From Oscillospiraceae bacterium (GTDB lineage Bacteria; Bacillota; Clostridia; Oscillospirales; Acutalibacteraceae): a stretch of 64,000 bases of DNA. The translations under genes were made by a program, and so were the position numbers. The DNA is taken from the NCBI GenBank assembly GCA_015066105.1, contig SVOY01000012.1:1-64000 (forward strand), written 5' to 3'. Below the pieces are notes generated by a model, which saw only the letters and a program-made list of their open reading frames with translations, was not told the DNA's origin and did no database searches. Shown here piece after piece: positions 1 to 29,497 of the stretch. How positions within the stretch are numbered: position 1 is the first letter of the stretch; each line of letters begins with the position of its first letter.

Positions 1-327
1 GAAAAGCAAGCAACGAATTTTGGGCACCGCAAGAGTATCGCGGAGCGCGTCTGCGTTGTAAAATTGAATATGTTGTTTATGACAGCGAAAGCTGTTCATA
101 TAAATGCGGATGTGGCGGAATTGGCAGCTTTGAGCTTGACCGCGTCCTGCGGACGGTGAAGGGAAAGCGAAAAGGCGCAGCGGTCAAAATTCGGCGAAGC
201 GAAAAGCAAGCAACGAATTTTGGGCACCGCAAGAGTATCGCGGAGCGCGTCTGCGTTGTAAAATTGAATATGTTGTTTATGACAGCGAAAGCTGTTCATA
301 TAAATGCGGATGTGGCGGAATTGGCAG
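1..327 (+). repeat. 200-bp tandem duplication upstream of tRNA-Leu
   Basis: Bases 1-127 recur at 201-327, a period of exactly 200 bp with no difference that I can see. The first copy ends after the first 22 nt of a tRNA-Leu (106-127) and runs into unrelated sequence at 128-200. The second copy continues into the complete tRNA. The window starts inside the repeat, so further copies may lie upstream. The duplication includes the region immediately 5' of the tRNA and therefore probably its promoter. No protein-coding gene is credible here. Confidence 0.9.
106..127 (+). pseudogene. 5' fragment of tRNA-Leu
   Basis: These 22 nt are identical to the start of the complete tRNA-Leu at 306 (acceptor strand and the beginning of the D arm). 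The sequence then diverges, with no anticodon, variable or T arm. It is a non-functional remnant made by the 200-bp duplication. Confidence 0.85.
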
Positions 328-392
328 ACGCGCTAGATTCAGGTTCTAGTGAAAGCAATTTCATGTGGGTTCAAGTCCCGTCATCCGCACCA
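306..392 (+). tRNA. tRNA-Leu (anticodon CAG)
   Basis: The 87-nt class II tRNA has a GCGGATG/CATCCGC acceptor stem, discriminator A and an encoded CCA at 390-392. The anticodon stem CTAGA/TCTAG encloses loop TTCAGGT, giving anticodon CAG, which reads CUG leucine codons. A long variable arm and a GGTTCAAGTCC T arm are present. A hairpin terminator follows directly. The 3' end appears to be the integration target of the downstream recombinase elements. Confidence 0.96.
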
Positions 393-393
393 T
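382..393 (+). other. Putative attachment site 1 (tRNA 3' end)
   Basis: The tRNA 3' end ATCCGCACCAT recurs at 16653-16663, and a weaker CCGCACCA match occurs at 29346-29353. A hairpin terminator follows all three. At sites 1 and 2 a serine recombinase reading frame, or its remnant, ends about 100-115 bp downstream. This is the layout expected of elements that insert at a tRNA 3' end and restore it. The core used for crossover is an inference. Confidence 0.55.
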
Positions 394-434
394 AGTGAGT
401 GTTCATAACACAAGTGAACACTCACTCTTTTTTT
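394..434 (+). terminator. Terminator of tRNA-Leu
   Basis: A perfect 12-bp stem (AGTGAGTGTTCA pairing with TGAACACTCACT) has a 9-nt loop and is followed by a run of T. It resembles the hairpins after the other two tRNA-end matches at 16664 and 29356. Confidence 0.85.
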
Positions 435-506
435 ATCCGTTTCCTCATTGTTAATTTTAGTATAGTATGTTATGTATTGAGCAGGTTTTGAGCCTGCTCT
501 TTTTTG

Positions 507-2183
507 TTATGCCGTGAGATATTCCACGGCTACGCCTCGTCTTGCTTCAAGGACTATATTTTCCTCTTTAACAGGATTTTCAATTACTCCAACAAAGCGA
601 TAATGAATGATGATTTTCTGTGTTTTGTTCTTACCTTTACCCTCGATAGAATGAACTTCAATTTTCTCAATGAGCTCATTCAAGAGTGCAGGTGTAAGAG
701 TTTCCATCTGCATAAACTTACGGACCGCAAAAGTAAACTGCTCTTTGCTTGTACGAAGATTTTCGATTTCAGACAGTTCTTCTTGATACTGCCTGATTTT
801 CAGCTTCAGCTCATCACGCTCTGCTTCATACTTCTGTGAGAGCTGCATAAAGCTTTCTTCATTTACAATTCCGTTGATGTGCTTCTCAAAGAGTTTTTCG
901 TACATCAGAGCAACCTCTTTTGTTCTTGCTGTTGCTTTATCAATGCTGCTTTCAAGAAACTTCTGCTGATTGAGTATGTTTTTGTTTGTCTTCGCTTCAA
1001 GAATATCTGCAAAGGCTTGCTCATCCCCCGCAAGAAAGTTCGCTAAATTTCTCAGCTCAAGCATAACAATCTGCTCCAAAGAATCCACCCTGACATAATG
1101 TGTTCCCTCACAAGTGCCTCTGCGACCTTTGTAATTTGAGCACATAAAATACTTGATGTCAGTATTAGGATGATTAACATTGAACCATAAAGGACTTCCA
1201 CAATCGGCACAGTATAACAATCCGCAAAACATATTCTTTTCAGCGTGCTTGGGATTCGGCGCTCTGCGTTTTGCTTTGGCTTTCATTTTCTGTACTGTTT
1301 CAAAAGTTTCTCTGTCAATTATCGGCTCGTGAACATTCTTAAAAATCTTCCAATTCTCTTCGGGATTCTGAAGTCTTTTCTTGTTCTTGAAATTCTTTGA
1401 GTAAGTCTTGAAATTGATAACATCACCGCAGTATTCCTGTTGAGCAAGAATTTTCTGTACCGTAGTCTTACACCATTTATACGGGTCAGGCTGAGTTTTC
1501 TTACCACCCTTGTTGAGACCTTTACTCTGCCAATATGCCATCGGTATCATCACTTTGTTTTCCTGAAGTATTCGGGCAATAGTTTCATTGCCTTTACCTT
1601 CAATACACATTGCAAAGATACTTTTAACAACCTCTGCAGCTTCTGTATCAACAATCCACTTCTTTTTGTTCTGCGGGTCCTTCATATACCCGTAAGGCGG
1701 TTGAGATAACGGCTCACCGAGATTTCCTCTTATGCGGTGTGAACTTCTGACCTTGCGACTTATGTCACGGGCATACATCTCATTCATAATATTCTTGAAA
1801 GGTGCAATTTCATTATCACCGTCATTACTGTCAACCAAATCGTTGACGGCGATGAAGCGTATGTTATGTTCAGGAAAGAAGTTGTCTGTGTAATGACCTA
1901 CTGAAACATAATCTCTGCCGAGACGGGACAAGTCTTTTACCATTACGGTTGTTACATATCCCATTTCAATATCTTCAAGCATTGCTTGGAATCCTGGTCT
2001 GTTAAAATTAGTCCCCGTATAGCCGTCATCAACATAAAACTTTGTGTTGGTGAGTTTCAACTCTTTTGCTTTTTGTGAAAGCAATCTTTTTTGATTACCG
2101 ATTGAGTTACTCTCGCTATCTGTTCCGTCATCGCGGGACAGACGACAATAGATTGCTGTTATGCCTAATTTATCCGACTGCAT
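507..2183 (-). CDS. Large serine recombinase (site-specific integrase)
   Basis: This 558-residue protein is a complete large serine recombinase of the TndX/TnpX type. The N-terminal resolvase fold carries the nucleophile in YCRLSRDD (Ser16), followed by the conserved DDGYTG and KDLSRLGRD motifs. A recombinase domain follows (about 160-290), then a zinc ribbon with CADC and a later Cys pair (about 320-360), and a coiled coil (about 400-480). Such enzymes cut and rejoin attachment sites to integrate or excise DNA. The gene ends 115 bp from the tRNA-Leu 3' end. It overlaps the small ORF upstream by 14 bp, so it probably belongs to a parB-orf-recombinase operon. It looks intact, unlike its truncated relative at 16765. 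Confidence 0.93.
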   Translation of the reverse strand: MQSDKLGITAIYCRLSRDDGTDSESNSIGNQKRLLSQKAKELKLTNTKFYVDDGYTGTNFNRPGFQAMLEDIEMGYVTTVMVKDLSRLGRDYVSVGHYTDNFFPEHNIRFIAVNDLVDSNDGDNEIAPFKNIMNEMYARDISRKVRSSHRIRGNLGEPLSQPPYGYMKDPQNKKKWIVDTEAAEVVKSIFAMCIEGKGNETIARILQENKVMIPMAYWQSKGLNKGGKKTQPDPYKWCKTTVQKILAQQEYCGDVINFKTYSKNFKNKKRLQNPEENWKIFKNVHEPIIDRETFETVQKMKAKAKRRAPNPKHAEKNMFCGLLYCADCGSPLWFNVNHPNTDIKYFMCSNYKGRRGTCEGTHYVRVDSLEQIVMLELRNLANFLAGDEQAFADILEAKTNKNILNQQKFLESSIDKATARTKEVALMYEKLFEKHINGIVNEESFMQLSQKYEAERDELKLKIRQYQEELSEIENLRTSKEQFTFAVRKFMQMETLTPALLNELIEKIEVHSIEGKGKNKTQKIIIHYRFVGVIENPVKEENIVLEARRGVAVEYLTA

Positions 2184-2433
2184 TTATCCTCCTTTCTCCG
2201 GCATTTGAATTCACACATTCTGCAATCATTGTATCATTACTTTCCGCAACAGACAAATGTGCGAAATCACTTCCGATAAATTTTTCTAATCTTTCCTTCA
2301 TTGTTATCTTTGTTTCTTCAAAGCGGGATGAAACAATGTACCTTACTCCGTTTATCACATACTCGTTACATTCGGCACGAATGTCATTGAGAATACATAA
2401 CAAACAAATTTTAAAATACTTAAATATTTTCAT
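2170..2433 (-). CDS. Small accessory protein of the recombinase operon
   Basis: This 87-residue protein of unknown function contains the stretch VNGVRYIVSSRFEE (with an I before it), a pattern I associate with small ORFs preceding large serine recombinases in clostridial elements. The ATG at 2433 is preferred over the one at 2448 because GAGGT lies 6-7 nt upstream of it, inside the end of parB. The ATG follows the parB stop by a few bases and the frame overlaps the recombinase by 14 bp, which indicates translational coupling on both sides. The beginning of a homologous frame survives near 17756 in the decayed second element. Confidence 0.6.
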   Translation of the reverse strand: MKIFKYFKICLLCILNDIRAECNEYVINGVRYIVSSRFEETKITMKERLEKFIGSDFAHLSVAESNDTMIAECVNSNAGERRINAVG

Positions 2434-2437
2434 TCTC

Positions 2438-3286
2438 TTACCTCGCATCTCTTTGCCGCATCAGGTACCGATGATAATGCTCGACGGCTTTGATTACAAA
2501 CTCTTGCTTTTGTTTTTCGGTGAACCTTGATTTAAAATATCTTTCAATACTTTCAGTTGGTATCTTAAGATAATCTTTTTGATTTGCTTTTGCTTCAGAC
2601 ATAATTTCAAAAAGTCTTTCATCAGTCAGCCTGAACTCTTGCGAAAGTTTTTTCAATCGAACAGATTGAGAATATGACGGAGTGACTTCTTCATTTTCAT
2701 AGAAGCAGTAAATCTGTTCTTGTTCGTAACCTGCAAGGTAAGATAGCTCAACTGCAGGTGTCAGAGATATTCTTCCTTCATCAACAAGCTTTAAGATTTC
2801 GGGAATGAGATAAGTTAACCGAATGTATCGCCTGACAGTTTCTCTGCTCTCGTTGTTTTCTTTTCCGATCATTTCATCTGTACGGAACTTCGTCACAGGC
2901 TGTGTCGAAGTTAAATCCGTCCTTGCTCCTTGATTTTTAAGTGCATCCATTTTCATTTTGTAAGCGTGAGCTTTCTCGCTGGGTAATACCTCATCTCTCT
3001 GCAAGTTAAGGTCAACGAGTATAACCGTTGCTTCATCTCTTGTAAGTTCCTTAACAATGCAAGGGATAGTTTCAATACCAAGTCTTCGGCAAGCCTCAGT
3101 TCTTCTATGGCCGCTGATGATTTCATACTGTCCATCGTCAAGTGTTCTAACAATTATTGGTGTAAGTACTCCTAAGTTTGCAATGCTTTCGATAAGCATC
3201 TCAAAGGCCGTGTCCTCTCTGAAGATGAAAGGATTGTTTTCAAATGTTTTTAAGTTTTCAATTTTGATTTCTGTTAATGTTGTCAT
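2438..3286 (-). CDS. ParB/Spo0J-family DNA-binding protein
   Basis: The protein has 282 residues. The N-terminal ParB-like nuclease-fold region includes the arginine/histidine patch ISGHRRTEACRR (about 58-69), and a helix-turn-helix-type region follows (ENNESRETVRRYIRL, about 145-160). Chromosomal and plasmid ParB proteins bind parS, hydrolyse CTP and work with ParA. No parA is present, so this is probably an element-borne ParB used for regulation or maintenance. Three iteron-like repeats at 3483-3655 lie upstream and are plausible targets. A shorter, deleted copy is at 17752-17961. Confidence 0.85.
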   Translation of the reverse strand: MTTLTEIKIENLKTFENNPFIFREDTAFEMLIESIANLGVLTPIIVRTLDDGQYEIISGHRRTEACRRLGIETIPCIVKELTRDEATVILVDLNLQRDEVLPSEKAHAYKMKMDALKNQGARTDLTSTQPVTKFRTDEMIGKENNESRETVRRYIRLTYLIPEILKLVDEGRISLTPAVELSYLAGYEQEQIYCFYENEEVTPSYSQSVRLKKLSQEFRLTDERLFEIMSEAKANQKDYLKIPTESIERYFKSRFTEKQKQEFVIKAVEHYHRYLMRQRDAR

Positions 3287-4559: not shown

Positions 4560-7500
4560 TTAGTTGATTGATTTCAGAATTAAAGTAACAACTCTGATTA
4601 TTGTTATTATCATACAGAAGAGTAACTGTATCTTATCGTCTCCGTGAGCCTTGCCGCCGCAAATATCACAGCGGTCATAAACCTCTTCGCCGCAGTCATC
4701 ACAAAGCTTATCGCCGTCTTCGTCAGAGTGGTCAATCATAGAACCCTCGTCTGCTACTGTATCAGTTTCACCGCAGCCGTGGATACAGGAGGCTGTCTTT
4801 GTTCCGTCAGCAGTGCAGGTTGCATCGCCGTTTGAGACGTAATCAAGGAAGATGTGCTCAAGAGCAGGAGTTTCTCTTTCGTCAGTTGTCTGACAACCGT
4901 TGTCGCAGTAAGCTACTTCCTTACCTGCAACACCGCACTTGGGAGCTTCGGTTTCTTCATACTTTGTGAAGGAGTGCTCGAGTGCTGTGCCTTCGATTTC
5001 TCTTTCGTCAGTTTCACCGCAGAACCAGCAGGTACCTGTTTCCTTTGCATTTACTTCGCACTTTGCAGATGAAGTTTCTGTATAATTCATAAATGAATGT
5101 GTGCCTGCAAGGCAGAGTTCAGCTGCATCAAAGAGTGCCTTAAGTCTTTCCTTAAGTTCTGCAATCTTTTCTGAGTTTTCAGCAACCGTACCGGTAAGAG
5201 CCATAGCTTCTTTTTCAATAGCCGTTGCTTCTGCAACCACTTCGTCAGTTGTTGAGTTCATTAAATTATTATAATTTTCTTCACCGTATTTTTCTATAAG
5301 GCTTTCAGCGCATTCATTATTATATTCAATAAGTATTGCAATACCGTCAACCTCAACAAGTGTGCCGTCTTCGATTCCCTTGTCAAGCTCTTCTTCGTAT
5401 TCACCGAGAGCCTTTTCAAGCTCTGTGAGGTCAGCTTCGCTTGTATTTTCGTCAGCCTTCATTTCTTCGAGCTGCTTCTTGATTTCTTCAAGGCCTGCCT
5501 TGCCTTCGTCGGTTACGTTTTCTGAAGCAAGCTTTTCTTCGATATCATCAATTGCTTCGTCGATTTCGGTATAGTCAGCCTTGACATATTCGCCGCTTGC
5601 GATTTTTTCTTCTGCATCAGCAATGATTTTCTCAAGCTCTGCAACTAAATCGTCAACTTTATTCTGCTCGCTTTCCGTAAGGTCATTGGAGGGAAGTCCG
5701 CATTCATTAGCTGCTGAATAGATTGCCTGCTTTGCTTCAGGTGTAAGCTCATCAGACTGAAGTAAAGCATTGATTTCTTCTGAAACAGCTTCATAAGCTG
5801 AGTAGTCGGCGCTCTTTACAGTCTCTGTCTTTTCTTCACCGCAAACAGTACAGGTGTAGGTGTAATAACCGTCCTTTGAGCCGAGAACTGCATCGTATAC
5901 GGGTCTTGTGAGTACGCCTTTGCCCCACTCGTGAGTGCATTCCTTGATAGTTACATCAACAGTACCCTCAACGTCATAGTGGTTTTCATCAGCGAGAACT
6001 CTGTAATAAACTGTGTAATTGCCTTCATCCTTTGCCTGAGGAATACTTGTTGACCAGCTTACACCGTCAAGGCTGTATTCGAAATCAGTACCCTCAACAG
6101 TACCTGCAGAGACAAGATCCTGCTCTTCGCCGTTATATGTAAGTGTATTGGGGGTGGGAGCAGTTAAGTCGTAATAAGCCTTTGTAATTGTGAACCACTT
6201 GCGGAATATTCCGTCGTAGTTGCCCTCAAAGATGATGACTGCCGTTGCATAGTTTCCAACGTAAACATTGTCCTCGTAGCGTACGGTGTAGTCCGTACCT
6301 TCTGTCAATGTCACACCGTCAACAGTGATAGAGGTAACTTTGGGTTTCTTTTCGGTTCCGTCGTAAACGTAGCTGTACTGTTCCAGATTGATTTTCATTT
6401 CATCAATAATGTCGTTAATATCTATCTGTTCAACAGTCAGAGTACCGTCCACGAATGTGATCTCATAGTTATCAGCGGTCAAGCCTTCGGGTGTGATCGA
6501 ATAGTCGCCTACATTGCCGTTCTGCGTATAGGTGTAGGTGTAAGCCAGCTCACCGCCAAGAACATTTTCATTCTCGCCATTCACAAAGCCGCTGTAAGTA
6601 ACACCGTTATTTGTGGGAGCTTCACCGTAGGTGATGGTTGCATCGCTTGCTGTTACGGTCAAAGGTGCTTTTTCGATGGTAACATCCACGGTAGCCTTTG
6701 CGCTGTCATTATGGTTTGCATCACCCTGAACGTAATACCAAACCGTGTAATCGCCTGCATTTGTACCTTGGGGGATGGTTGTGGTATACTCGCCGTTCTC
6801 GGTCAAGCTGTAAACCATCGCTCCGCCGACTGCCTCACCTGCGCTGATGAGATACTGCGCTTCGCCGATGTAGGTCAGCGTATTGGGGGTAGGGGCCGCT
6901 GCGATGACCGGGTTCGCCTTTTCAATGATGAACTCTACGCTTGCCACAACGGCATTCTCGTTCTCGCCCATGCCAATGGAAGCGGTATAGGTGCCTGCAT
7001 TCACAGGTGCGCCGGTAAAGGCTTCGCCGTCCTTGGTAAGGGTAACGGGAATAATCGTATTTTCCAAAGAGCCGGTCTTAGAAACGACAACCTCAACCGC
7101 ATTGCCGTCATAGGTCTTGCCCTCTGCGCCGATGGTAGCGGTGCCGCTGTAGCCGCAGTTTGCGGAGCAGGCAGCGGTGATGACATTGTCCTTTGCGGTA
7201 TAGGTCAGAGTGTGTTCCTCGGTAACGGTAGTTCCGCAGCAGGGATAGACTGCACTGTGGGTGCCGTCGCCGTTGTCGGTATAGGTGGGTTTCTGTGTAT
7301 GGTCAGGCTTTTCTGCGGAGATCGTTTCGTCATTGGTGTATTTCGCCACGGTGTCGCCGCAGGAGGTGTAGCCGTAGTAGACCTTTGCGCCGTTGAAGGT
7401 GGGAGTGGTCTGAACGGGCTTGCCGTTGTCCAGATCCTGGCCCCAGATGGAGCCGTTTTCGCCCTGGCTCAGCAGGTAGGCCACCTCGCCGGAGGCAAAC

Positions 7501-16571: not shown

Positions 16572-16649
16572 TATGTATTCCTCCGTATATGAGGAAAATC
16601 TATATAGCACGGAGAATGTGTGTTACCGGAGAATTGAACTTGTGTTATG

Positions 16650-17961: not shown

Positions 17962-18294
17962 GATAGACCTCCTAAATTTTAAAAATAGATTTTGATTTTT
18001 GTTTTCAAAGAAAACAGGCTGTGGTAGAAAACAAGATTTTTACTGCTTCAATTTGTTTGCACGGTCAGTTGGTATAGAAAAAAGTAATTTGATTGTGCCA
18101 TAAGCATTTTGCATAAATTGATGTGTGACATGAAATCAAACAACAGACTCATTATTAACTTTAGTTCCGGTGATATATCTGATAATGTATACCATATTTG
18201 TTATAGTGAATTTTTTGAATCCGACAAGCTTAGATTTTTTTCAAAAATCTTTTCAAAAAATGACAATAAAATAGGCTTTTTAAATAAAAATCAG
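17962..18294. other. Non-coding stretch before the pilus operon
   Basis: It begins with a shortened version of the parB leader and a copy of AACAGGCTGTGGTA, which also occurs near 4456 in element A. The roughly 1.2-kb control region of element A (iterons and candidate RNA) is missing here. The remainder is AT-rich and I see no gene in it. Confidence 0.5.
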
Positions 18295-18838: not shown

Positions 18839-19432
18839 ATGGTAAGAAAAAAATCAAGGAAAATTTGGTCGATTCCAACAGTTGAACAAATCGAAGCTGA
18901 AATCCTCAGAGAAAAATATAACCGTAAATATAAACAGGTACTCAGAAGCACAATGTATGCTCTTGTTGTAGTTGCTGCCGTTGCAGTTCTGATTGCAACG
19001 CTTGCTTTACCTGTTCTGCAGATTTCGGGCAGCAGCATGGAGCCGACACTCAACGACGAAGAAATAGTTGTGCTTTTAAAAACTACAAACTTGAAAAGAG
19101 ACGAGCTGTGCTGCTTCTCTTACCAAAACAAGCTTCTGATCAAGAGAATCATCGGTCTGCCCGGAGATGAAATAAATATTGACGAAAACGGAAACGTTTA
19201 TGTAAACGATGTGCTTCTCGACGAGCCTTACGTTACGGACAAGTCTCTGGGTGAATGTGATATAACCTTCCCGTGCTATGTTACGGATAACCACTATTTC
19301 GTTTTAGGCGATCACCGTTCAACTTCAATTGACAGCCGTAGCAGTGTAATAGGTCTTGTAAGCGAAGATTATATCGTAGGAAAAATATTTTTCAGAATAT
19401 GGCCGTTTGAAAGCATCAGCCTGGTTGACTGA
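18839..19432 (+). CDS. lepB: Signal peptidase I
   Basis: The 197-residue type I signal peptidase has one N-terminal transmembrane helix (about 38-60). The catalytic serine is in SGSSMEPTL (Ser66) and the lysine in LLIKRIIGLPGD (Lys102). The later GDHRSTSIDSR box (about residues 159-169) is conserved. A dedicated signal peptidase is common in pilus clusters, where it removes signal peptides from pilins or is needed for assembly. AGGAG lies 11 nt before the ATG. Confidence 0.92.
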   Translation: MVRKKSRKIWSIPTVEQIEAEILREKYNRKYKQVLRSTMYALVVVAAVAVLIATLALPVLQISGSSMEPTLNDEEIVVLLKTTNLKRDELCCFSYQNKLLIKRIIGLPGDEINIDENGNVYVNDVLLDEPYVTDKSLGECDITFPCYVTDNHYFVLGDHRSTSIDSRSSVIGLVSEDYIVGKIFFRIWPFESISLVD

Positions 19433-19463
19433 TGTTTACAAAGTGTAAAAAGGAGGTGGCAGG

Positions 19464-22400: not shown

Positions 22401-23981
22401 AAGGGTGAAAATACTCTTGAAGATGTACTCTTACAAAACTATGCAATGGCTAATGAGGCGTATCTGAATTTTACTGACATTATTCAGGCAACAGGTGTCA
22501 GCACGTATAAATATGCTCCGACAATAACAAAAAAATCCGTTGTAAATGATGATGGTACAATTGATTATACAGTTGTATTCCATAACACAATTCCCGGTTC
22601 CGGCGGCAATCAAGGTTATCTCACATCTGCTTATTCGATAACCTTCAACGATACGTTTGATGAAAAACTTGAGTACGTTGGAGGCTCTTTAATGGTTACT
22701 TGTTACGATCCTTGGAATGATGCAGTTTGGTATAATAAATATGTATATGACGGTATGGTTTCAGGTAACACAATGAGCATACAGGCAAATGAGTTTGATT
22801 TAAGTCAAACTAATTCTGATTTGCCATCGGCAACTATCGGATGGATAAGTCCTTTTACTGATTATCAGAAATACTGCAATCAGATCGGTGCAGGCGGTAA
22901 GCACGTTTTCACCTACAAACTCAAACTAAAAGATGAATATCTTAATACAACCGAGGAAAATAAGTTTGTTCTTGATAATACAGCTGAACTCAAATGGAAT
23001 GCTGACAACTCATCAGGTCCTGTAACGGATACAGTTGAAATCAAGACAGGCCTTTTGGATAAGCAGGTTGTTCAAGAAGATAACAGATTGAATTTTGATA
23101 TTCATATCAACCGTAACGCTCTTGATATTCTGGTTGGTGCAGACACACTTACAATTGAGGATACAATGACTGAGAATCTTTCGGTTTATTGGGATTCAAT
23201 AAAACTGTTTTACGAAGACAAAAACGGTAACTGGATAGATTTCGACAGTGCAGACAGTGTATACAGCTATACCGTTACTTATGATCAGCACGTCAACAGA
23301 CTTACTTTTGTCGTGCCGGACAGTCTCCATATCAGAATTGACTATACCACTCTCATAACGCAAAGCGGTTTTGTTTCGGTAAACAATGCAGTTAAAGTTG
23401 ACGGTAAAGCTCAGGTAACAGATATAATCGATGCAGTTTTTAAGGTTGAACAGCATAGCGGTGGTGCATCAGGCTCCATTAACAACATCACACTTCTTAA
23501 GCAAGACGGCGATACAGATGTACCATTGTCTGATGTTACCTTCCTGCTTTACGGACCTGTGGGCGACCCTAATGCGGTGGTGCCAACAGGGGCACAGAAC
23601 ACTATCTTGACTGATGCAGGAAAAACACTTCGTTATATCGGTTCATATATCACGGGTGCTGACGGTACTGTTAAAATCCAGACTCAGTATCTTACATTTG
23701 GTGGTCCTTATGCATTAGTTGAAACCCATGCACCGACGGGATACAACAAGCTCGAAAAGCCCGTATATTTTTATTACTACGAAGCTGACCCAAACGGTAT
23801 AATTCAGACCGTTACAACTATCATAGCTGTAGAAAACTATACCTACGGTTTTGTACTTCCTGAAACAGGCGGTACAGGCAGACTACCCTTAACAATTATC
23901 GGCTTTGCTTTAATGGCAACTCCGTTATTGTATAGCACAATTCGTCGAAAACGTGAAGGGAGGTTGACACAATCTCCATAA
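19464..23981 (+). CDS. Large SpaA-type LPxTG adhesin (tip pilin candidate)
   Basis: This 1,505-residue protein starts at TTG with AGGAGGT upstream. A transmembrane helix near the N-terminus (about 22-45) is followed by HTHS...C motifs and a Thr/Glu-rich linker. A CHAP-like domain lies at about 195-300, but the position usually held by the nucleophilic cysteine reads WNAMFVSFC, so it may be inactive. Long SpaA/isopeptide-type beta domains follow. A Cna-B-like domain near the end contains YALVETHAPTGYNK. The C-terminus has LPETG (about 1,472), a hydrophobic helix and RRKREG, so sortase anchors it. As the largest pilus protein it is the likely tip adhesin. Confidence 0.88.
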   Translation: MNAVNRDYLDRHKKFRLDNKKLATAFIVLSLVIAIIVFWWLKLVGITVTGEAFCGLEEHTHSVDCYVQQLICDYSQETTAENETTAEDATTEDNETTASGTLPSEEDVSAEGTSQEEFPEGISEETTEESAAYEELSVQTHTHTHSNECYEKTLVCTETEHTHTADCFPDKTADVETVSDWLDTIESVKITNNIPENLVAIAMTQAGYEESKNNFEYDSEGNKNGYTRYGEWYGNPYGKWNAMFVSFCLHYANINNVDELKSAGAEAMRLAWQGRYAYSSADVYTGERGDLVFFDTDGDKAADTVGIVIAVGDENITVISGDSNNKVETTYMELSENVIGYGLTGELHFAKDTEYDEESTQTITEPEELTEYNAPILMMSDLSEQSDATEPQITYINDLTSVVKSVSFQTLEGEIVDENSTIYLGQTYVISMEFAEKNTGDEWIQFKHDEDHHLHYQIPENIHCEPFTEWHSITAKTENGTIEDVGEYFIRDDGLLIVVFKDDPVTGECFGSKYSNVDFFIEFNATVGTTQTGSSAEVVFNDEIKVNLNIDTTAEMQVSKTHGAYNGKENTLEYQIRIEATKAVIKDLVVPDDIWEKHHALKDTIVVTDLDGNVLDPQPTISEGSYGNYGFTLTGFPDFAAGEGFLINYKASINDDLLTQDSVGLWNGVYPYGKDATGAPVNGSAEDWAVVELNKIEKDGKQSVIEKDDGTIVPVIEWEIEIKKSDSNLEGTVIIDTLGDGLAYYTDESIRIKRYDQWGNRINDISLSWDNVDVNNNSMSFELPEGYRFVIVYYTTYEELRDGEMKHYTNTAKVTINQREEVAGGEADVVGFVPNIRKSASGNDGEYIYFTIEADIPAVIKDWGGFFLTDLAAFWGYNGNSEGYLYVENMPEDLVITAVTESGQTVSFTPYVAGGTTENTYILVAPAEGNQYHSFNIYFNTSQADSDSSKWILSENSKLTITYKIPFDAGTGVEWTGELKGENTLEDVLLQNYAMANEAYLNFTDIIQATGVSTYKYAPTITKKSVVNDDGTIDYTVVFHNTIPGSGGNQGYLTSAYSITFNDTFDEKLEYVGGSLMVTCYDPWNDAVWYNKYVYDGMVSGNTMSIQANEFDLSQTNSDLPSATIGWISPFTDYQKYCNQIGAGGKHVFTYKLKLKDEYLNTTEENKFVLDNTAELKWNADNSSGPVTDTVEIKTGLLDKQVVQEDNRLNFDIHINRNALDILVGADTLTIEDTMTENLSVYWDSIKLFYEDKNGNWIDFDSADSVYSYTVTYDQHVNRLTFVVPDSLHIRIDYTTLITQSGFVSVNNAVKVDGKAQVTDIIDAVFKVEQHSGGASGSINNITLLKQDGDTDVPLSDVTFLLYGPVGDPNAVVPTGAQNTILTDAGKTLRYIGSYITGADGTVKIQTQYLTFGGPYALVETHAPTGYNKLEKPVYFYYYEADPNGIIQTVTTIIAVENYTYGFVLPETGGTGRLPLTIIGFALMATPLLYSTIRRKREGRLTQSP

Positions 23982-24053
23982 ACACAAGGACGTAGAATGC
24001 AAAAAAACACAGTAAAAAATTGCAAATTTCAAAAAAGAAAGGAAGTAAGAATT

Positions 24054-25520
24054 ATGAAGAAAGTATTTGCAGTTTTAGTAGCACTTACCCTCGTTCTCTC
24101 AATGGGAACAATGGCATTTGCAGCCGACACAGGCTCAATCACAATCAGCAATGCTCTTGAAGGCGCAGAGTATAACATCTATAAGATGTTCGACTTTGCT
24201 CCCGTAGAAGGCAGCACAACTCAGGGTCGTTACACCGTAGTAAGCGGTTGGGAGGCTTTCCTTGCAGGCGACGGTGCAGCTTACCTTAAGACAAATGCCG
24301 ATACAGGCACAATCGAATGGAACGGTGAAGAAACAGCAGAAAGAAAAGCTGAGCTTGCAAAGAAGGCTGTTGCTTATGCAAAGGCTAATAGCATTGCCGC
24401 AACAGAAACAAAGACAGCCGATGCTGACGGTGCCGTAACATTTGCAGATGTTGCTCTCGGTTACTATGCAATCGACACATCACTCGGTACAATCTGCGCT
24501 CTTACAAATGTTGACAATACATTTGAAGCACACGAAAAGAACGAAAAGCCTGACATCGACAAGTACGTTCAGGAAGACAGTGAAATGACAAATGCAGACG
24601 AAGGCTGGGGCAAGGTTAACGATGCTGATATCGACCAGCAGGTTAACTACAAGTCAACAGTTACAGTAGGTCTCGGTGCAACAAACTATGTAATGCACGA
24701 TACTATGGAATCAGGCCTTACCTTCAATAACGATGTAGCTGTTAAGCTTGCTGACGGTACAGTTGTTGCTGCTGCAAACTACACAGTAGTATATCCCGCA
24801 ACTGACGGTCACACCTTTGATGTTCAATTCAAGAATGACTTTATTGCAGGCCTTGCAAAGGGTACACAGTTCACAGTTTACTACTCAGCAACTCTCAACG
24901 AAAATGCAAATATCGTAACTGACGGTAACGACAACACAGTTTACCTTTCATACGGTGAAGACAGCACTTGGGAAACAAATGAACACAAGACAACAACTTA
25001 CACATGGAAGATGGACGTAGAAAAGTTTACCCAGGATGGCGGAAACAGAATTAATCTTGCTAACGCTGTATTTATGCTTCTCAGAACAGAAGGCGTTAAG
25101 GATTCAGCTATCAAATTTACAGATGTAACTAAAGAAGGCGAAATTCCTACTTATATGGTTGACGCTGCAGGTACAATTACAGAAATCGTAACTGATGATG
25201 GCGGTAAGTTTGAAATCGTAGGTCTCGATGCAGATACATACTACCTTCACGAAGAAGCAGCTCCCGCAGGTTACAACAAGCTCGCTAATGATGTTGAAAT
25301 CGTTATTGACAGCACATATGATGAAGAAAATCTTACAGCTACAGCTACAGTAAGCGGTGTTAATGCTGAAGGCTTTATCGAAGTAGAAAACAAGACCGGC
25401 TCACTTCTTCCCGAAACCGGTGGTATCGGTACAACTATATTCTATGTAGTTGGCGGTCTTCTTATGGTTGCAGCTTTTGTTCTTCTCGTTTCAAAGAAGA
25501 GAATGGCTTCCTTCGCTTGA
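24054..25520 (+). CDS. Major pilin, SpaA/fimbrial isopeptide family
   Basis: The 488-residue protein begins MKKVFAVLVALTLVLSMGTM with AGGAAG upstream; the signal peptide ends near FAAD. Two to three Ig-like isopeptide domains follow, including a D2-type central part. A Cna-B-like domain has YYLHEEAAPAGYNK and the E-box EVENKTGSLLPETGG, where LPETG is the sorting signal, followed by a membrane helix and a SKKR tail. The codon usage is rich in favoured codons, which fits high expression. In class C sortase clusters this protein is polymerised into the shaft. The hairpins directly downstream may set its level relative to the sortase. Confidence 0.92.
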   Translation: MKKVFAVLVALTLVLSMGTMAFAADTGSITISNALEGAEYNIYKMFDFAPVEGSTTQGRYTVVSGWEAFLAGDGAAYLKTNADTGTIEWNGEETAERKAELAKKAVAYAKANSIAATETKTADADGAVTFADVALGYYAIDTSLGTICALTNVDNTFEAHEKNEKPDIDKYVQEDSEMTNADEGWGKVNDADIDQQVNYKSTVTVGLGATNYVMHDTMESGLTFNNDVAVKLADGTVVAAANYTVVYPATDGHTFDVQFKNDFIAGLAKGTQFTVYYSATLNENANIVTDGNDNTVYLSYGEDSTWETNEHKTTTYTWKMDVEKFTQDGGNRINLANAVFMLLRTEGVKDSAIKFTDVTKEGEIPTYMVDAAGTITEIVTDDGGKFEIVGLDADTYYLHEEAAPAGYNKLANDVEIVIDSTYDEENLTATATVSGVNAEGFIEVENKTGSLLPETGGIGTTIFYVVGGLLMVAAFVLLVSKKRMASFA

Positions 25521-25529
25521 AGGGATAAA

Positions 25530-25586
25530 GAATCAGACGGTTCCGAGTCAGAAGATAAAGAACCCACTGACTCAGAAGCCTGATTC
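25530..25586 (+). promoter_or_regulatory. Nested hairpin after the major pilin
   Basis: GAATCAG (25530-25536) pairs with CTGATTC (25580-25586), and inside it GAGTCAG (25545-25551) pairs with CTGACTC (25567-25573). The hairpin starts 10 bases after the pilin stop codon. No T run follows, so it may be a 3' stabiliser or a partial block rather than a terminator. Confidence 0.6.
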
Positions 25587-25621
25587 CACAGTTAACAGCT
25601 GACGGACATTAAAAATCTAAT

Positions 25622-25646
25622 CCCTGCCGACATAAAGTCGGCAGGG
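25622..25646 (+). promoter_or_regulatory. Strong 10-bp hairpin between pilin and sortase
   Basis: CCCTGCCGAC pairs perfectly with GTCGGCAGGG around loop ATAAA. It is GC-rich and lacks a following T run. With the hairpin at 25530 it makes the 200-bp gap highly structured, a plausible site for reduced read-through or protection of pilin mRNA. Confidence 0.65.
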
Positions 25647-25728
25647 TGATGACGGTAAAAATCTGACCGTTGTTTCTGAATTTATTTCGGTGATAACGTT
25701 GAGATTTTTATAATAAGTGAGAAATATT

Positions 25729-26589
25729 ATGAAAAATAAAAAACAACAAAAAAAGAAAAGCGGCAATGCCTCCACCATTTTGCTTGTGGCGATATTTTTT
25801 TTGGGACTTTGTGTTCTGCTGTATCCTACTGTAAGCGATTTCTGGAACGAAAAAAGGCAGTCCCAGGCAATTATCAATTACGATGATCTTATCGTTGACC
25901 TGACTCCCGAGGATTATTCCGAGTATTTTTCCAATGCTGATTCCTATAATCAGAAAATCAGAAATATGTCCTTCCCGTTTCTGAATCACAAGGATATTGC
26001 TGACGAATATTACAGCACCCTTGATGTCAACGGTGACGGTATGATGGGTTACATCACCATTGAGAAAATCAAAGTTCAGCTGCCTATTTATCACGGAACA
26101 AGCGATAAGGTTCTTAACTCGGCTGTAGGTCATGTTGAAGGGTCAAGTCTTCCCGTAGGCGGAGAAAGCACTCATGCGGTTATGTCTGCCCACAGAGGTC
26201 TGCCCTCGGCAAAGCTTTTTACCAACCTTGATAAAGTCGAGGTCGGTGATGTATTTACAATCAGAATCCTTGACAGAACAATCACATATCAGGTTGATCA
26301 GATTCTCATAGTGCTTCCCGAGGAAACCGATAACCTTAATATCGTACCCGGTGAGGATTATTGTACACTTGTCACTTGTACTCCTTACGGAATAAACACT
26401 CACAGAATGCTTGTCAGAGGAACACGGATTGAAAACATAGAGCCTGAAAAGGTAATCAATGTAATTACCGAGGCTTATAAGATTGACCCGCTGATTGTAA
26501 CTCCTGCTGTGGCGGCACCAATGCTCGGCATGCTTCTTGTTGCTCTTCTTATTAAAAGCGGCAAAGGTAAAAATAAAAAGAAGAAATAA
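25729..26589 (+). CDS. Class C sortase (pilin polymerase)
   Basis: This sortase of about 286 residues has an N-terminal membrane helix, the region LYPTVSDFWNE typical of class C, the catalytic histidine in MSAHRGLPSAKLF, the cysteine in TLVTCTPYG and the arginine in THRMLVRGTR. A second C-terminal helix and a lysine-rich tail follow. These enzymes link pilins through LPxTG threonine and a pilin lysine. I choose ATG 25729, with weak GTGAGA upstream; GTG at 25717 is also possible. It lies directly downstream of the major pilin, its presumed substrate. Confidence 0.93.
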   Translation: MKNKKQQKKKSGNASTILLVAIFFLGLCVLLYPTVSDFWNEKRQSQAIINYDDLIVDLTPEDYSEYFSNADSYNQKIRNMSFPFLNHKDIADEYYSTLDVNGDGMMGYITIEKIKVQLPIYHGTSDKVLNSAVGHVEGSSLPVGGESTHAVMSAHRGLPSAKLFTNLDKVEVGDVFTIRILDRTITYQVDQILIVLPEETDNLNIVPGEDYCTLVTCTPYGINTHRMLVRGTRIENIEPEKVINVITEAYKIDPLIVTPAVAAPMLGMLLVALLIKSGKGKNKKKK

Positions 26590-26611
26590 TTTTTGAGAGG
26601 AGATCGGGAAT

Positions 26612-27580
26612 ATGAAAAACAATAAAACTGTCAGAGCTATTGTTGTGTTTTTTACAGTTGTTATTTTCTGCATCTGTTCCGCTTCTCCTTTTGTCTGTGC
26701 AATTCTTGAACGAAACGGAACTATTACCCTTAACGTTGCAGACTCAAACACACACAAGCCCTTGCCGGGGATGAGCTTTCGTCTCTACCTTTTTGCCGCC
26801 GCCTATGAAAGCGGAAACGGTGTAGGCTACGATTACGTTGTTCCCTACGATGACTGTAATATGGATATGGGCAATCTTCAGGATGCTTATCTGCCCATTC
26901 ATCTTGCACATTTTGCAAACACCCACTCGCTTCCCTATACTGAAAAAACATCTGACGAAAACGGACACATTCTTTTTGACGACCTTGCACCGGGTGTGTA
27001 TCTAGTGCTTGCGTCGGAAAGTCTTCCCAATTACTTTATGCCATCACCCTTTGTTGTTAATATACCGTTATATGACAATGAAAATAAAAGCTGGGTGTAC
27101 GATGTCAATGCAACACCTAAAATGAGAATTTACGGCGGCTCTGCAGAAAATACCTTTACCTACATCAGCGTCAAAAAGGTTTGGGAGGAAGACCGCAGAC
27201 ATCCCGAAAGCGTAACGGTCAGTCTTTTATGTGACTTTACTCAGGTTGATACGGTTGAATTAAGCGAAGAAAACAACTGGAGCTTCCGTTGGGAGAATCT
27301 TTCGGCAAAGCACAACTGGAATGTGGTTGAAACTGTGCCTGACGGTTACAAGGTTTCCTATGAGATTTCGGAAAACACCGTAAAAATAATTAACCGTGCA
27401 GATTCAGACGCCCCCGAAGGCTCACCTCCGTCCGATGAAACAACTACCGAGGAAGAGGAGCTTATTTATACGGGACAGCTTAACTGGCCAATTCCGATTT
27501 TTTCAGCAGCAGGTCTCTTACTGTTCAGCCTCGGATGGGCGATGTTCAATTTCGGCAACAAGGACGAGGAAGCAGTATGA
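26612..27580 (+). CDS. Minor pilin with Cna-B domains and variant sorting signal
   Basis: The 322-residue protein has a signal peptide (about 1-30), a SpaA-like domain starting LNVADSNTHKPLPGMSF with YLVLASESLPNY, and a Cna-B domain (ISVKKVWEEDRRHPESV ... WNVVETVPDGYKVSYE). The C-terminus reads LIYTGQLNWPIPIF, then a membrane helix. Relatives usually have LPxTGQLNWP here, so the sorting motif is altered at its proline. The stop codon overlaps the ATG of the second sortase (ATGA). It is the likely basal or minor pilin. Confidence 0.85.
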   Translation: MKNNKTVRAIVVFFTVVIFCICSASPFVCAILERNGTITLNVADSNTHKPLPGMSFRLYLFAAAYESGNGVGYDYVVPYDDCNMDMGNLQDAYLPIHLAHFANTHSLPYTEKTSDENGHILFDDLAPGVYLVLASESLPNYFMPSPFVVNIPLYDNENKSWVYDVNATPKMRIYGGSAENTFTYISVKKVWEEDRRHPESVTVSLLCDFTQVDTVELSEENNWSFRWENLSAKHNWNVVETVPDGYKVSYEISENTVKIINRADSDAPEGSPPSDETTTEEEELIYTGQLNWPIPIFSAAGLLLFSLGWAMFNFGNKDEEAV

Positions 27581-28170
27581 AAAGAAAAGCAGGTATTATT
27601 TTTATGGTTATCGGCATTATGCTTATAGGCTGTGCCGTAGGGCTTCTTATTTATAACAAAAACGAAAACATGAAAGCTCGGGAAAGCTCAGTTGAGATTA
27701 TGGAGTCGGTCCGTGCAGTGATATCAGAAAAGGAAACGGCTGAAGCTGCTGACCCATTTGATGAAGAAATGACGGTTAAAGATATTGACGGCTACGGGTA
27801 CATAGGATACCTTTCCGTGCCGGTGCTTGACATAGACCTGCCCGTTATGTCAGAGTGGGATTATGACAGGCTTAAGATATCTCCCTGCAGATATTACGGC
27901 AGTACAAAAACAGATAATCTTGTTATAGCCGGTCACAATTACGATTCTCATTTCGGATATCTCGGTGAGCTTAAGCCGGGCGATTCGGTTATCTTCATGG
28001 ATATGGATGCCGTTGTGCACAATTACAAGGTGGATTCGGTGGAGCTTCTTATGCCCACAGACGTTGACAAGGTCAAGGACAGTGGCGACGATCTGATTAT
28101 ATACACGTGTACCTACAGCAGGACAAAGAGAATAACGGTGAGATGCAACCGTATGCAACAAGTATCCTGA
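27577..28170 (+). CDS. Second sortase of the pilus operon
   Basis: The 197-residue sortase has an N-terminal membrane helix (about 5-25), a linker, then the sortase fold with YIGYLSVPVLDIDLPV, the catalytic histidine in VIAGHNYDSHFG, the cysteine in LIIYTCTYS and arginine in KRITVRC. The size and motifs fit a housekeeping-like or class D/B-type sortase rather than class C. It is translationally coupled to the minor pilin with the odd LIYTG motif, which suggests it recognises that signal and attaches the fibre to the wall. Confidence 0.87.
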   Translation: MKRKAGIIFMVIGIMLIGCAVGLLIYNKNENMKARESSVEIMESVRAVISEKETAEAADPFDEEMTVKDIDGYGYIGYLSVPVLDIDLPVMSEWDYDRLKISPCRYYGSTKTDNLVIAGHNYDSHFGYLGELKPGDSVIFMDMDAVVHNYKVDSVELLMPTDVDKVKDSGDDLIIYTCTYSRTKRITVRCNRMQQVS

Positions 28171-28307: not shown

Positions 28308-28730
28308 TTAACTGTATATCAGCTCACTGCAAACAATTTCCCTTGCTCGTTGCTGAATATCGCCCATCCTCTGTACCCATTCAAGCTGGTCTTGCTCTTT
28401 AAGCTCTTCAGTGACACCTTCTGCCTCTTTCATCTGCTCAATCAGAAGGTCGTACATTTCATTTGCCTGACGGTCAATATCTGCAAGATACGGCCAAAGT
28501 GTGCATTTGGTTACCATAAGCATAAAAAGACCTCGTTTGTTGCGCTCAAGGTAGTTTTTGTGCATCATGTCTCGCCTGCCGGCTCGGTCGGTTCGCCTGT
28601 TTGAGTGCCACCGGCACTCGCTCACCCCATTTACCTACAATGATATCTGCTTGTTCAGGCGGCAGGATGATATTAGGAATTTTAAAGTCGCCAACCTGTC
28701 GATAAGTTATCTTTGTTTTGCTTGCCATAA
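28308..28730 (-). pseudogene. tnpV interrupted by a GC-rich insertion
   Basis: The 5' part (MASKTKITYRQVGDFKIPNI to GKWGE, from 28728) and the 3' part (MMHKNYLERNKRG to CSELIYS) match the intact tnpV at 15484 but lie in different frames. About 56 bp at 28568-28623 separate them, contain the hairpin GAGTGCC-ACC-GGCACTC, and shift the frame. TnpV is therefore probably not made in full. Confidence 0.8.
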
Positions 28731-28741
28731 TTCTGTCCTCC

Positions 28742-28900
28742 TTATTTTTCATAAGTATCAATGAGCTTTAAAAGTAATTCGTCAACATCCTCGGTAGGTA
28801 AATCCTCCGCCAAAAGCATATTGCGAAACTCATTTATTCCGTTGATAAGTAAATTGCATTCAAAGCTGTCGAGTTTGATTTTTATTTTCTTGCTGAACAT
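28742..28900 (-). CDS. Small 52-residue protein of the mobile element
   Basis: This short frame starts MFSKKIKIKLDSFECNLLIN and ends LLLKLIDTYEK, with AGGAGGTAAAA just upstream of the ATG. It resembles small ORFs seen beside tnpV in clostridial transposons; function unknown. No counterpart is left in element A. Confidence 0.65.
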   Translation of the reverse strand: MFSKKIKIKLDSFECNLLINGINEFRNMLLAEDLPTEDVDELLLKLIDTYEK

Positions 28901-28973
28901 AAGATTTTACCTCCTTGTATTTTGTAACTACATTGTACAAGGAGGCTCGACTTTTGTCGAATGTGTGAGATTA

Positions 28974-29240
28974 TTATTTTACAAAAGTATCGTATGCAAA
29001 TCTTGCTCCGAACCTGAAGCCTGAAACAAAGCCGTCAGAAATGCTTATACTTGAAAACTCATTATATGCGCTCGTATAATTAAAGAACAGTGCTTTCTCT
29101 TCTTCAGAAAGCTTTGAAGTCAATTCTTCCTCTTTCTTTACAAGTTCACGTAATTTCTTTTTTAGTCTTGGCGTGAGTTCTGTGGTAAGCTCCTGCGGCT
29201 CAAGGTTTCCGTAGAATAATTCTTCTATTATATTTGACAT
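28974..29240 (-). CDS. DUF6809-like small protein
   Basis: The 88-residue protein (MSNIIEELFYGNLEPQEL to SGFRFGARFAYDTFVK) is a near copy of that at 16287. It has GGAGG upstream of the ATG. It is the last gene of element B before the third tRNA-end-like site, the same position as in element A. Confidence 0.75.
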   Translation of the reverse strand: MSNIIEELFYGNLEPQELTTELTPRLKKKLRELVKKEEELTSKLSEEEKALFFNYTSAYNEFSSISISDGFVSGFRFGARFAYDTFVK

Positions 29241-29343
29241 TATGTATTCCTCCGTGTGAATCCGTCTTTAGCTTAGTGAAGTCGTACTGAATATATAATG
29301 TCTGCGTCGGTTTTGATTAGTGTTGAGTAAATCCCTTATGAGC

Positions 29344-29353
29344 ACCCGCACCA
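29344..29353 (+). other. Putative attachment site 3
   Basis: ACCCGCACCA shares CCGCACCA with the tRNA-Leu 3' end, and the preceding bases (TTATGAGC) resemble those at site 2 (TTATGAAT). A 13-bp hairpin follows. It would mark the outer end of the tandem elements. The match is short, so this is tentative. Confidence 0.4.
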
Positions 29354-29355
29354 CC

Positions 29356-29399
29356 TTGAGTATTCATAAGGCACTTGGCCTATGAATACTCAATTTTTT
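29356..29399 (+). terminator. Hairpin after attachment site 3
   Basis: TTGAGTATTCATA pairs perfectly with TATGAATACTCAA (13 bp, 12-nt loop), followed by TTTTTTA. It is similar in sequence and position to the hairpins at 394 and 16664. Confidence 0.8.
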
Positions 29400-29497
29400 A
29401 TTTGTAATTCTCCCCCTTTTTATGAGTATTTTTGAATTATTACCTTCTCTCGCAAGGCAAATAATATATGTATTTTAATTTTCAGTCAACTTTGTAT

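What the first reader, a model, noticed from the sequence alone, without database searches (positions are those of the whole stretch)
300..29400. Two tandem recombinase elements at tRNA-Leu, each carrying different surface-protein cargo
Three junctions (382-393, 16650-16663, 29344-29353) contain CCGCACCA matching the tRNA 3' end, each followed by a similar hairpin. Between them the same order repeats: serine recombinase, small ORF, parB, cargo, tnpV/DUF6809 module. Cargo A is a 3,042-residue GLUG protein with TetR; cargo B is a sortase-pilus operon. The two bodies look like cassettes that exchange surface structures at one chromosomal site.
Basis: partly seen in the sequence, partly recalled or inferred. 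Interest (0 to 1): 0.8.

Follow-up and report, generated by a model that had tools for sequence, protein, structure and literature searches.

The report
Serine integrase elements targeting tRNA ends
The two DNA blocks are mobile elements whose serine-type integrase appears to insert them exactly at the CCA end of tRNA genes of several kinds, by recognising features that tRNAs share, a target class that one tRNA-island paper says serine integrases were not known to use.

Summary
The tandem is real: tRNA-Leu(CAG) 306-392, element A 393-16662, element B 16663-29353. B is decayed: its integrase lacks the catalytic domain. In related gut Clostridia this integrase clade (large serine recombinase, DUF4368) sits just 3' of tRNA genes: of 109 loci taken without regard to tRNAs (top of capped lists), 86 lie beside a complete tRNA gene and 11 at a tRNA 3' fragment; nine amino-acid types in all. 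One 14,955-bp element is 99.993% identical at tRNA-Leu in one genus and tRNA-Pro in another. Element ends carry GAGTG at the same distance from the core as the acceptor stem, and a T-arm copy exactly 5 bp further out, the known attP/attB geometry of serine integrases. All 68 distinct left ends examined supply a terminator. Cargo is general, so 'surface cassettes' is too narrow. [quoted passage not shown] Integration itself is untested, and a few loci do not fit.

The parts
306..392 (+). tRNA-Leu(CAG), target gene; its T-arm (about 369-379) and acceptor/CCA form the left half of attB; predicted crossover dinucleotide CA at 391-392
   Evidence: ARAGORN; motif geometry
393..433 (+). Left end of element A: RD-like motif GAGTG 397-401, arm TTCATAACACAAGT 402-415, and hairpin plus T-run that would replace the tRNA terminator
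507..2183 (-). Large serine recombinase of element A, 558 aa, intact (Resolvase, Recombinase, zinc ribbon, DUF4368)
2170..2448 (-). Small ORF, 92 aa, overlapping the recombinase start; no Pfam match; function unknown (candidate directionality factor, inference)
2438..3286 (-). ParB_N-domain protein
4560..13688 (-). Cargo A: 3,042-aa protein with Glug, MBG_2, Flg_new_2 and beta-helix repeats
13864..14217 (-). 23S rRNA-intervening-sequence protein family, between inverted repeats at 13707-13742 and 14222-14257
14214..15056 (-). TetR-family regulator (ORF as listed; the true start may lie inside)
15484..15870 (-). TnpV of element A
15872..16610 (-). Two DUF6809 proteins of element A (15872-16150 and 16287-16610)
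16638..16662 (+). Right end of element A: arm ACTTGTGTTATGAA, then ..CCGCACC|A core
16663..16703 (+). Left end of element B: arm GTTCATAAGGGATTT plus terminator hairpin
16765..17646 (-). Truncated serine recombinase of element B: C-terminal part only, no catalytic Resolvase domain (frame open to 17718)
17777..17965 (-). parB remnant of element B (two stretches similar to A's parB)
   Evidence: repeats D9 and D11
18839..28170 (+). Cargo B: signal peptidase S26 (18839-19432), collagen-binding/SpaA protein (19464-23981), LPXTG pilin backbone (23997-25520), sortase (25717-26589), Cna_B/SpaA pilin (26612-27580), sortase (27535-28170)
28308..29240 (-). TnpV (28308-28625, shorter frame than in A) and DUF6809 (28974-29240) of element B
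29329..29353 (+). Right end of element B: AAATCCCTTATGAGCAC CCGCACC|A
29354..29400 (+). Element-left-end-like hairpin and T-run after the third junction (remnant third element, or native terminator)

Best explanation
[quoted passage not shown] Shown by sequence: elements of this clade abut tRNA genes of nine amino-acid types at CCA; elements with both ends found have inverted arms symmetric about the CA of CCA; element ends carry GAGTG at positions 6-10 from the centre, as the acceptor stems of the preferred tRNAs do or nearly do, and a copy of the T-arm sequence (GGAYTTGA, reverse complement of TCAARTCC) at 19-26, exactly 5 bp further out than in the tRNA (14-21); and the left end carries a hairpin and T-run of terminator type. 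Inferred: the recombinase domain reads GAGTG at one place in both partners, the zinc ribbon domain reads the T-arm motif in two positions 5 bp apart (attB against attP), and strands are exchanged with a CA overlap at the last two bases of the tRNA gene. The tRNA stays whole, gains a new terminator, and its own downstream sequence ends up at the far side of the element. A new element can enter beside an older one, giving the tandem A-B (either order of entry gives the same product); B has since lost its catalytic domain. Cargo is free to vary. Movement between cells is probably by mobilisation where a relaxase is carried (none found in A or B).
For: Survey without regard to tRNAs (best 80 loci, 29 of the best): of 109 loci, 86 beside a complete tRNA gene, 11 at a tRNA 3' fragment with the T-loop at the right spacing, 4 on contigs starting inside the tRNA end, 4 at CCA without a T-loop, 4 with no junction. 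All 88 distinct tRNA junctions of a set that adds 19 pre-selected loci end in CCA; Pro 41, Leu 27, Tyr 6, others 14. Tree of 139 recombinases: all 97 tRNA-adjacent ones lie in one 120-row branch (support 100); 0 of the 19 outside have a tRNA gene within 300 bp; at least 36 changes of tRNA type. Same 14,955-bp element, 99.993% identical, at tRNA-Leu(GAG) and tRNA-Pro(CGG) in two genera. A motif from element ends only scores +7.17 bits on average over the 37 distinct tRNA genes of the genome at the 5-bp offset and -4.1 to -21.05 at the 13 other offsets tried; three tRNA genes of this genome with elements or recombinase remnants rank 1, 3 and 6 of 37. The 5-bp ZD shift is the rule shown for LI integrase (PMC3783163, passages). 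Terminator-type hairpin in 68 of 68 distinct left ends. Syntenic loci with and without an element-type end. Tandem junctions also in L206, L211, L213.
Against: No integration or excision was observed. Four of 109 loci show no junction (L123, L174, L193, L201), and two clade members in single-contig genomes (L233, L235) sit away from any called tRNA though with CA just before the element end, so targeting is not absolute. The right half of attB shows no motif that I could define. The end-derived score predicts tRNA use only moderately (Spearman 0.50, p 0.0015; AUC 0.69), and several control shifts do about as well or slightly better (ZD shift 6: AUC 0.70; RD shift -2: AUC 0.73). Pairing of element ends with their own tRNA beats shuffles only slightly and relatedness is not controlled. 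Right ends were found for only 14 of 121 integrase hits, one of them judged spurious. The survey lists are capped at the best scores. Most genomes are MAGs; the tree is FastTree with some long branches.
Confidence: 0.87

Rival explanations
1. Classical tRNA island: an 8-10 bp core (CCGCACCA) shared by tRNA and element is duplicated at each end, as with tyrosine integrases, and the site is specific for tRNA-Leu.
For: Three junctions in the window share CCGCACCA, and A's right end shares ATCCGCACCA with the tRNA.
Against: The integrase is a serine recombinase. Right ends keep the CAC[TC]CGCACC|A type, with small variants, at tRNA genes whose own ends differ, e.g. Gly ..CGCTCCA (L208), Gln ..CCAGCCA (L225), Pro ..CTCCGACCA (L214), so nothing beyond CCA is exchanged there. 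A tyrosine-type insertion at one of the same tRNAs looks different: a 23-bp displaced tRNA fragment next to a Phage_integrase gene in L097.
Confidence: 0.04
2. Insertion near tRNA genes is guided by something other than the DNA sequence of T-arm and CCA (for example transcription, open chromatin or a host factor), and the T-arm-like motif in the element arms is a fossil of a captured tRNA end.
For: The right half of attB shows no clear motif, and element right ends look like tRNA-Leu acceptor ends. The end-derived score predicts target use only moderately.
Against: Insertion is at one exact base position; the motif occurs at the 5-bp offset that serine integrases are known to use and in both arms symmetrically where both were found; targets are mostly tRNAs whose acceptor stem reads CACTC or close.
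Confidence: 0.06
3. A dedicated surface-structure switching system: cassettes at one tRNA-Leu site are exchanged to vary surface proteins.
For: Both window elements carry large surface proteins; L209 carries a 1,141-aa Flg_new repeat protein.
Against: Equivalent elements carry methyltransferase/restriction genes, an ABC exporter with radical SAM/PqqD, sugar kinase/aldolase or hardly any cargo (2.7 and 3.0 kb) and sit at several tRNA genes. B lacks a catalytic recombinase domain.
Confidence: 0.03

Closest known systems
Tn4451/Tn4453 (TnpX) and TndX-like integrative mobilizable elements
   Same: Large serine recombinase with DUF4368 (Durrant et al. say the DUF4368-rich clade includes TndX-like enzymes; passages), TnpV, mobilisation genes in several relatives, circular intermediate implied by the arms.
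   Different: Tn4451 has low integration specificity and recombines 2-bp identical sequences (PMC5704250, passages; the GA dinucleotide is recalled). These use CA at tRNA CCA ends.
Multi-targeting large serine recombinases (Durrant et al. 2022, PMC10083194)
   Same: DUF4368-bearing clade; closely related enzymes use several target genes.
   Different: In the passages read the motifs described are AT-rich or more complex ones not tied to a gene class, and the word tRNA has 0 occurrences in the main text. Here the shared target is a feature of tRNA genes.
tRNA-gene genomic islands with tyrosine integrases (Islander)
   Different: Those split the gene and restore it from an island-borne fragment. 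Here the gene is not split, only CCA is shared, and the element brings a terminator-type hairpin. [quoted passage not shown]
Serine-integrase ICEs/IMEs of streptococci (rumA, traG, maff2, snf2 targets)
   Same: Serine integrase at one end of an integrative element, short direct repeats.
   Different: They integrate inside protein genes, mostly disrupting them (PMC4701971, PMC5357655, passages).

Membership tests
Large serine recombinases (integrases) | Resolvase catalytic domain, Recombinase domain, zinc ribbon domain | tested here: met
   Element A protein matches PF00239, PF07508, PF13408, PF14287; element B protein lacks PF00239.
Large serine recombinases (integrases) | attP with inverted arms around a 2-bp core, zinc-ribbon motif 5 bp further out in attP than in attB | tested here: met
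   compared with PMC3783163 (passages).
Large serine recombinases (integrases) | Catalysed attP x attB recombination | not testable with these tools
   Needs a bench assay.
Tn4451/TndX-like integrative mobilizable elements | DUF4368 large serine recombinase plus TnpV | tested here: met
   for A; B has TnpV and DUF4368 but no catalytic domain.
Tn4451/TndX-like integrative mobilizable elements | Own mobilisation protein (relaxase) | tested here: inconclusive
   None among the A and B proteins scanned; Mob_Pre or MobA-type relaxase in relatives L206, L225, L244, L209, L124.
Tn4451/TndX-like integrative mobilizable elements | Low-specificity targets with a GA core (GA recalled) | tested here: not met
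   Core is CA in CCA, targets are tRNA 3' ends.
tRNA-gene genomic islands (Islander type) | Tyrosine integrase | tested here: not met
   Serine recombinase.
tRNA-gene genomic islands (Islander type) | Split tRNA restored by an island-borne fragment, displaced fragment at the far end | tested here: not met
   Right ends found carry the element's own CAC[TC]CGCACC|A type, not a copy of the target.
Multi-targeting DUF4368 recombinases | Near-identical enzymes at several different target genes | tested here: met
   L206 and L214: same element at Leu and Pro tRNA; at least 36 changes of tRNA type on the tree.

The most novel reading that the evidence does not exclude
A whole clade of large serine integrases has made the universal parts of tRNA genes (acceptor stem, T-arm and CCA end) its attB, with an attP that mimics a tRNA end stretched by 5 bp. 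One enzyme can thus land at many tRNA genes and, in principle, in many bacteria, without breaking the tRNA and with its own terminator supplied; repeated entry at the same CCA builds tandem cargo arrays.
Probability: 0.78. Interest if true: 0.85.

Novelty: new variant of a known kind. Interest (0 to 1): 0.77.

Why it matters
tRNA genes are the classic landing sites of tyrosine integrases, and the Islander paper says that only those are known to target them (PMC4383910, passages). A serine integrase that reads conserved tRNA features would explain how one element can jump between tRNA genes and genera, makes the 5-bp attP/attB rule testable on a natural family of dozens of target variants, and offers a possible integration tool with a defined target that leaves the gene whole. 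It also means that island finders which expect long direct repeats may miss these elements.

Tried and rejected
Rejected: CCGCACCA as a significant repeat by itself. CCGCACCA as target duplication (right ends). A third element downstream with matching arms: the arm right of junction 3 (TTCATAAGGCACTT) has no other copy in the window with fewer than 2 mismatches, and 10 matches at up to 3 mismatches against 7.85 expected. GH18 gene (29558-30586) as a marker of the native site: found in 19 of 34 genus genomes, own included, but tRNA-Leu(CAG) was not called near it in the 20 loci fetched; a tRNA-Leu(GAG) was called near it in L048, and my look at it read the other strand and was not informative. 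Right-end hit in L213 with 3 mismatches at 16846: judged spurious; a 3-mismatch hit in L216 was kept. Within-genus empty sites for three elements from their far flanks: the flank was found outside the element's own genome in only one of the three searches (one of the three had a single genome to search); L257 and L252 are empty-like junctions with the same terminator type but at other tRNA genes. ParB as a known directionality factor: of the two papers listed I looked for ParB only in PMC5704250, whose passages name it as a partition protein. Not done: structure prediction; any test of excision.

Papers: only passages were read; no paper was read whole. The claim that I found no description of serine integrases at tRNA genes rests on those passages and on the searches, in an open-access library only. 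The TIGER/Islander resource paper (PMC12424338, passages) puts 33.8% of its islands in tRNA or tmRNA genes without, in what I saw, a split by integrase type, so such cases may sit unremarked in its data.
Full report
WHAT IS THERE. The window is bases 1-64000 of contig C6 of a 2.48-Mb, 27-contig genome. Relatives fetched by name are titled mostly Clostridia or Oscillospiraceae bacterium, many from ruminants and rabbits, with isolates such as Ruminococcus sp. FMBCY1 and Pseudoruminococcus massiliensis; one is titled Lachnospiraceae (L103) and one Muribaculaceae (L139). tRNA-Leu(CAG) lies at 306-392. Element A runs from 393 to 16662 and element B from 16663 to 29353. A has an intact large serine recombinase, small ORF, ParB-like protein, a 3,042-aa repeat protein, a 23S-IVP protein, TetR, TnpV and two DUF6809 proteins. 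B has a pilus operon with two sortases and TnpV/DUF6809, but only the C-terminal part of the recombinase and scraps of parB.

JUNCTIONS. Counting outward from the point between C75 and A76 of the tRNA, A's left end reads GAGTG at 6-10 and TTCATAACACAAGT at 11-24; its right end carries the exact reverse complement of that arm at the same distance. B's arm is TTCATAAGGGATTT with one change at the right end. Each element thus has its own inverted arms, and the symmetry puts the crossover on CA, the last two bases of the tRNA gene.

THE CLADE TARGETS tRNA GENES. In the genus search (34 genomes) most recombinases at about 45% identity or more proved to lie 89-147 bp from the 3' end of a tRNA gene: Leu, Pro, Gly or Tyr. 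A set taken without regard to tRNAs followed: the best 80 loci and 29 of the best, both capped lists. Of these 109, 86 have a complete tRNA gene just there (85 by the CCA-junction motif; L139 has a 2-base shorter end), 11 a tRNA 3' fragment with the T-loop at the right spacing, 4 start inside the tRNA end at a contig edge, 4 have CCA without a T-loop, 4 show no junction. They cover eight amino-acid types; some loci occur in both collections; 90 junction sequences are distinct. In a larger set that includes 19 pre-selected loci, all 88 distinct tRNA junctions end in CCA: Pro 41, Leu 27, Tyr 6, Met 3, Gln 3, Arg 3, Ser 3, Gly 1, Val 1. To find the edge of the clade I fetched 20 of the lowest-scoring hits: 5 of the 20 (42-45% identity) are also beside a tRNA gene at CCA, 15 (36-42%) are not. 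On a tree of 139 enzymes all 97 tRNA-adjacent ones fall in one branch of 120 (support 100), and none of the 19 outside it has a tRNA gene within 300 bp. The branch also holds 16 rows without a called tRNA and 7 with too little flank; most of the 16 are tRNA fragments, tandems or tRNAs slightly further off. The tRNA type changes at least 36 times.

SAME ELEMENT, TWO tRNA TYPES. The element in L206 (G008, at tRNA-Leu(GAG)) and in L214 (G260, another genus, at tRNA-Pro(CGG)) is 14,955 bp long in both and 99.993% identical. The right flanks differ: in L206 another element follows, in L214 a different sequence. Both are contigs of fragmented assemblies.

RIGHT ENDS. Right ends were found for 14 of 121 recombinase hits at up to 3 mismatches, one of them (L213) judged spurious and one (L216) kept at 3 mismatches; for the other 107 none was found (many loci are short or at contig ends). 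They read [arm]TTATGAA-CAC[TC]CGCACC|A, with small variants, whatever the target tRNA, even when that tRNA has another base at 73 (Gly T in L208, Gln G in L225). So only CCA is common to both partners, and the exchange lies within it. In 10 of the 12 right flanks that are not another element, the first bases fold to -10 kcal/mol or lower, terminator-like.

HOW THE TARGET IS READ. The tRNA half-sites read GAGTG-like sequence at 6-10 and GGAYTTGA at 14-21 outward; element left ends read GAGTG at 6-10 (0.99, 0.94, 0.98, 0.99, 0.72) and GGATTTGA at 19-26. An offset scan of the tRNA T-arm against element ends peaks at +5 (6.35 of 12 matches; next best 4.67). Real pairs match slightly better than shuffled pairs (6.14 against 5.85, sd 0.06, 0 of 5000 shuffles), but relatedness is not controlled. 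The cleanest control: a motif built from element ends alone, scored on all 37 distinct tRNA genes found in the window's genome, averages +7.17 bits at offset 5 and between -4.1 and -21.05 at the 13 other offsets tried. Together with GAGTG it ranks tRNA-Pro(GGG), Leu(GAG) and Leu(CAG), the three tRNA genes of this genome seen with a clade recombinase or its remnant, 1st, 3rd and 6th. A fourth site, an element-type end without recombinase on contig C12, abuts a tRNA 3' end of the Leu(TAA) sequence, which ranks 7th. The rank correlation with target use is moderate (0.50, p 0.0015; AUC 0.69), and some shifted controls do as well or better (ZD 6: 0.70; RD -2: 0.73), so this last point is weak support. 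Rutherford et al. 2013 showed for LI integrase that the zinc-ribbon motif lies 5 bp nearer the centre in attB than in attP, with the recombinase domain assumed to keep its place (PMC3783163, passages). That is the pattern found here, with the tRNA T-arm as the attB copy.

TERMINATOR. All 68 distinct left ends examined have a hairpin (median -20.9 kcal/mol) followed by a T-run. GAGTGTTCA of the attachment arm is one strand of that hairpin in A, so the same bases may serve integration and termination of the tRNA transcript (the second by inference).

EMPTY AND OCCUPIED SITES. Of 30 tRNA-Leu(CAG) loci fetched in the genus (31 matches), 9 are followed by an element-type end, one stops at the CCA, and 20 by other sequence, mostly unrelated terminators. 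'Occupied' here means such an end, not always a recombinase in hand. Upstream sequence shows the same locus with an element end in L068 and without in L076 (1,289 bp, 84%), with in L069 and without in L074 (866 bp, 71%), and with different element ends in L070 and L072 (1,354 bp, 71%). Tandem junctions occur in the window and in L206, L211 and L213. In L097 a 23-bp tRNA fragment precedes the element and a Phage_integrase gene lies beside it, so a tyrosine-integrase element probably entered the same tRNA later and pushed the serine element away.

CARGO. Besides surface proteins (A, B, L209): methyltransferase and restriction genes (L114, L140, L211, L216, L244), an ABC exporter with PqqD and radical SAM proteins (L206), PfkB kinase and aldolase (L225), FtsX/ABC (L208), MBOAT and GDSL enzymes (L110) (40 chosen proteins, not all of the ORFs). 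L101 (2,977 bp) and L128 (2,721 bp) carry little beyond the recombinase. Relaxases occur in L206, L225, L244, L209 and L124, and probably in L211, whose protein starts like that of L206 but was not scanned; none was found among the scanned proteins of A or B.

KNOWN OR NEW. Islander (2014) states that only tyrosine integrases are known to target tRNA genes. In the passages seen, Mycobacterium prophage surveys report tRNA sites for tyrosine integrases and none for serine ones. Streptococcal serine ICEs and IMEs sit in protein genes, two IMEs in intergenic regions. Durrant et al. 2022 describe multi-targeting DUF4368 enzymes without the word tRNA in the main text. I found no description of this targeting mode in the searches listed; the library is open-access only, and the TIGER data could hold cases unremarked. 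I file it as a new variant of large-serine-recombinase elements.

LIMITS. All is sequence inference; exceptions exist (L123, L174, L193, L201 without a junction; L233 and L235 with CA at the element end but no tRNA). The directionality factor and the role of ParB, the small ORF, TnpV and DUF6809 are unknown.

Noticed in passing
window 1-305: Bases 1-127 recur exactly at 201-327 and include a 22-base copy of the tRNA-Leu 5' end (106-127); related repeats of about 110-160 bp lie upstream of tRNA-Leu genes in this genome and genus (e.g. L002, L007, L077-L079, L082). A family of repeats tied to tRNA 5' ends, not explained.
   Followed up: partly
window 13707-14257: A 23S rRNA-intervening-sequence-type protein gene sits between inverted repeats of a GTGCAAAACG-type sequence inside element A; it may be a small mobile unit of its own.
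   Followed up: no
L097:11974-13173 and junction near 11794: A tyrosine-integrase gene lies beside a 23-bp tRNA-Leu(GAG) 3' fragment that precedes the serine element; L103, L124, L034 and L167 show similar fragments, so two integrase classes may share these tRNA ends (integrase looked for only in L097 and part of L124).
   Followed up: partly
L233, L235: Clade members in single-contig genomes inserted away from called tRNA genes but with CA just before the element end; possible secondary sites.
   Followed up: partly
L101 (2,977 bp) and L128 (2,721 bp): Very small elements with both ends and little besides the recombinase: L101 has TnpV and one 104-aa frame, L128 one 224-aa ORF without Pfam match.
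   Followed up: no
L224: Complete tRNA-Arg(CCG) with a hairpin and T-run after it, followed about 150 bp later by a tRNA-Arg 3' fragment and an element left end, resembling the repeat-plus-fragment arrangement before tRNA-Leu in the window.
   Followed up: no
G000 contig C12, near 34330 (L003): An element-type left end next to a Leu(TAA)-type tRNA 3' end with no clade recombinase found on that contig; a further remnant site in the window's own genome.
   Followed up: no
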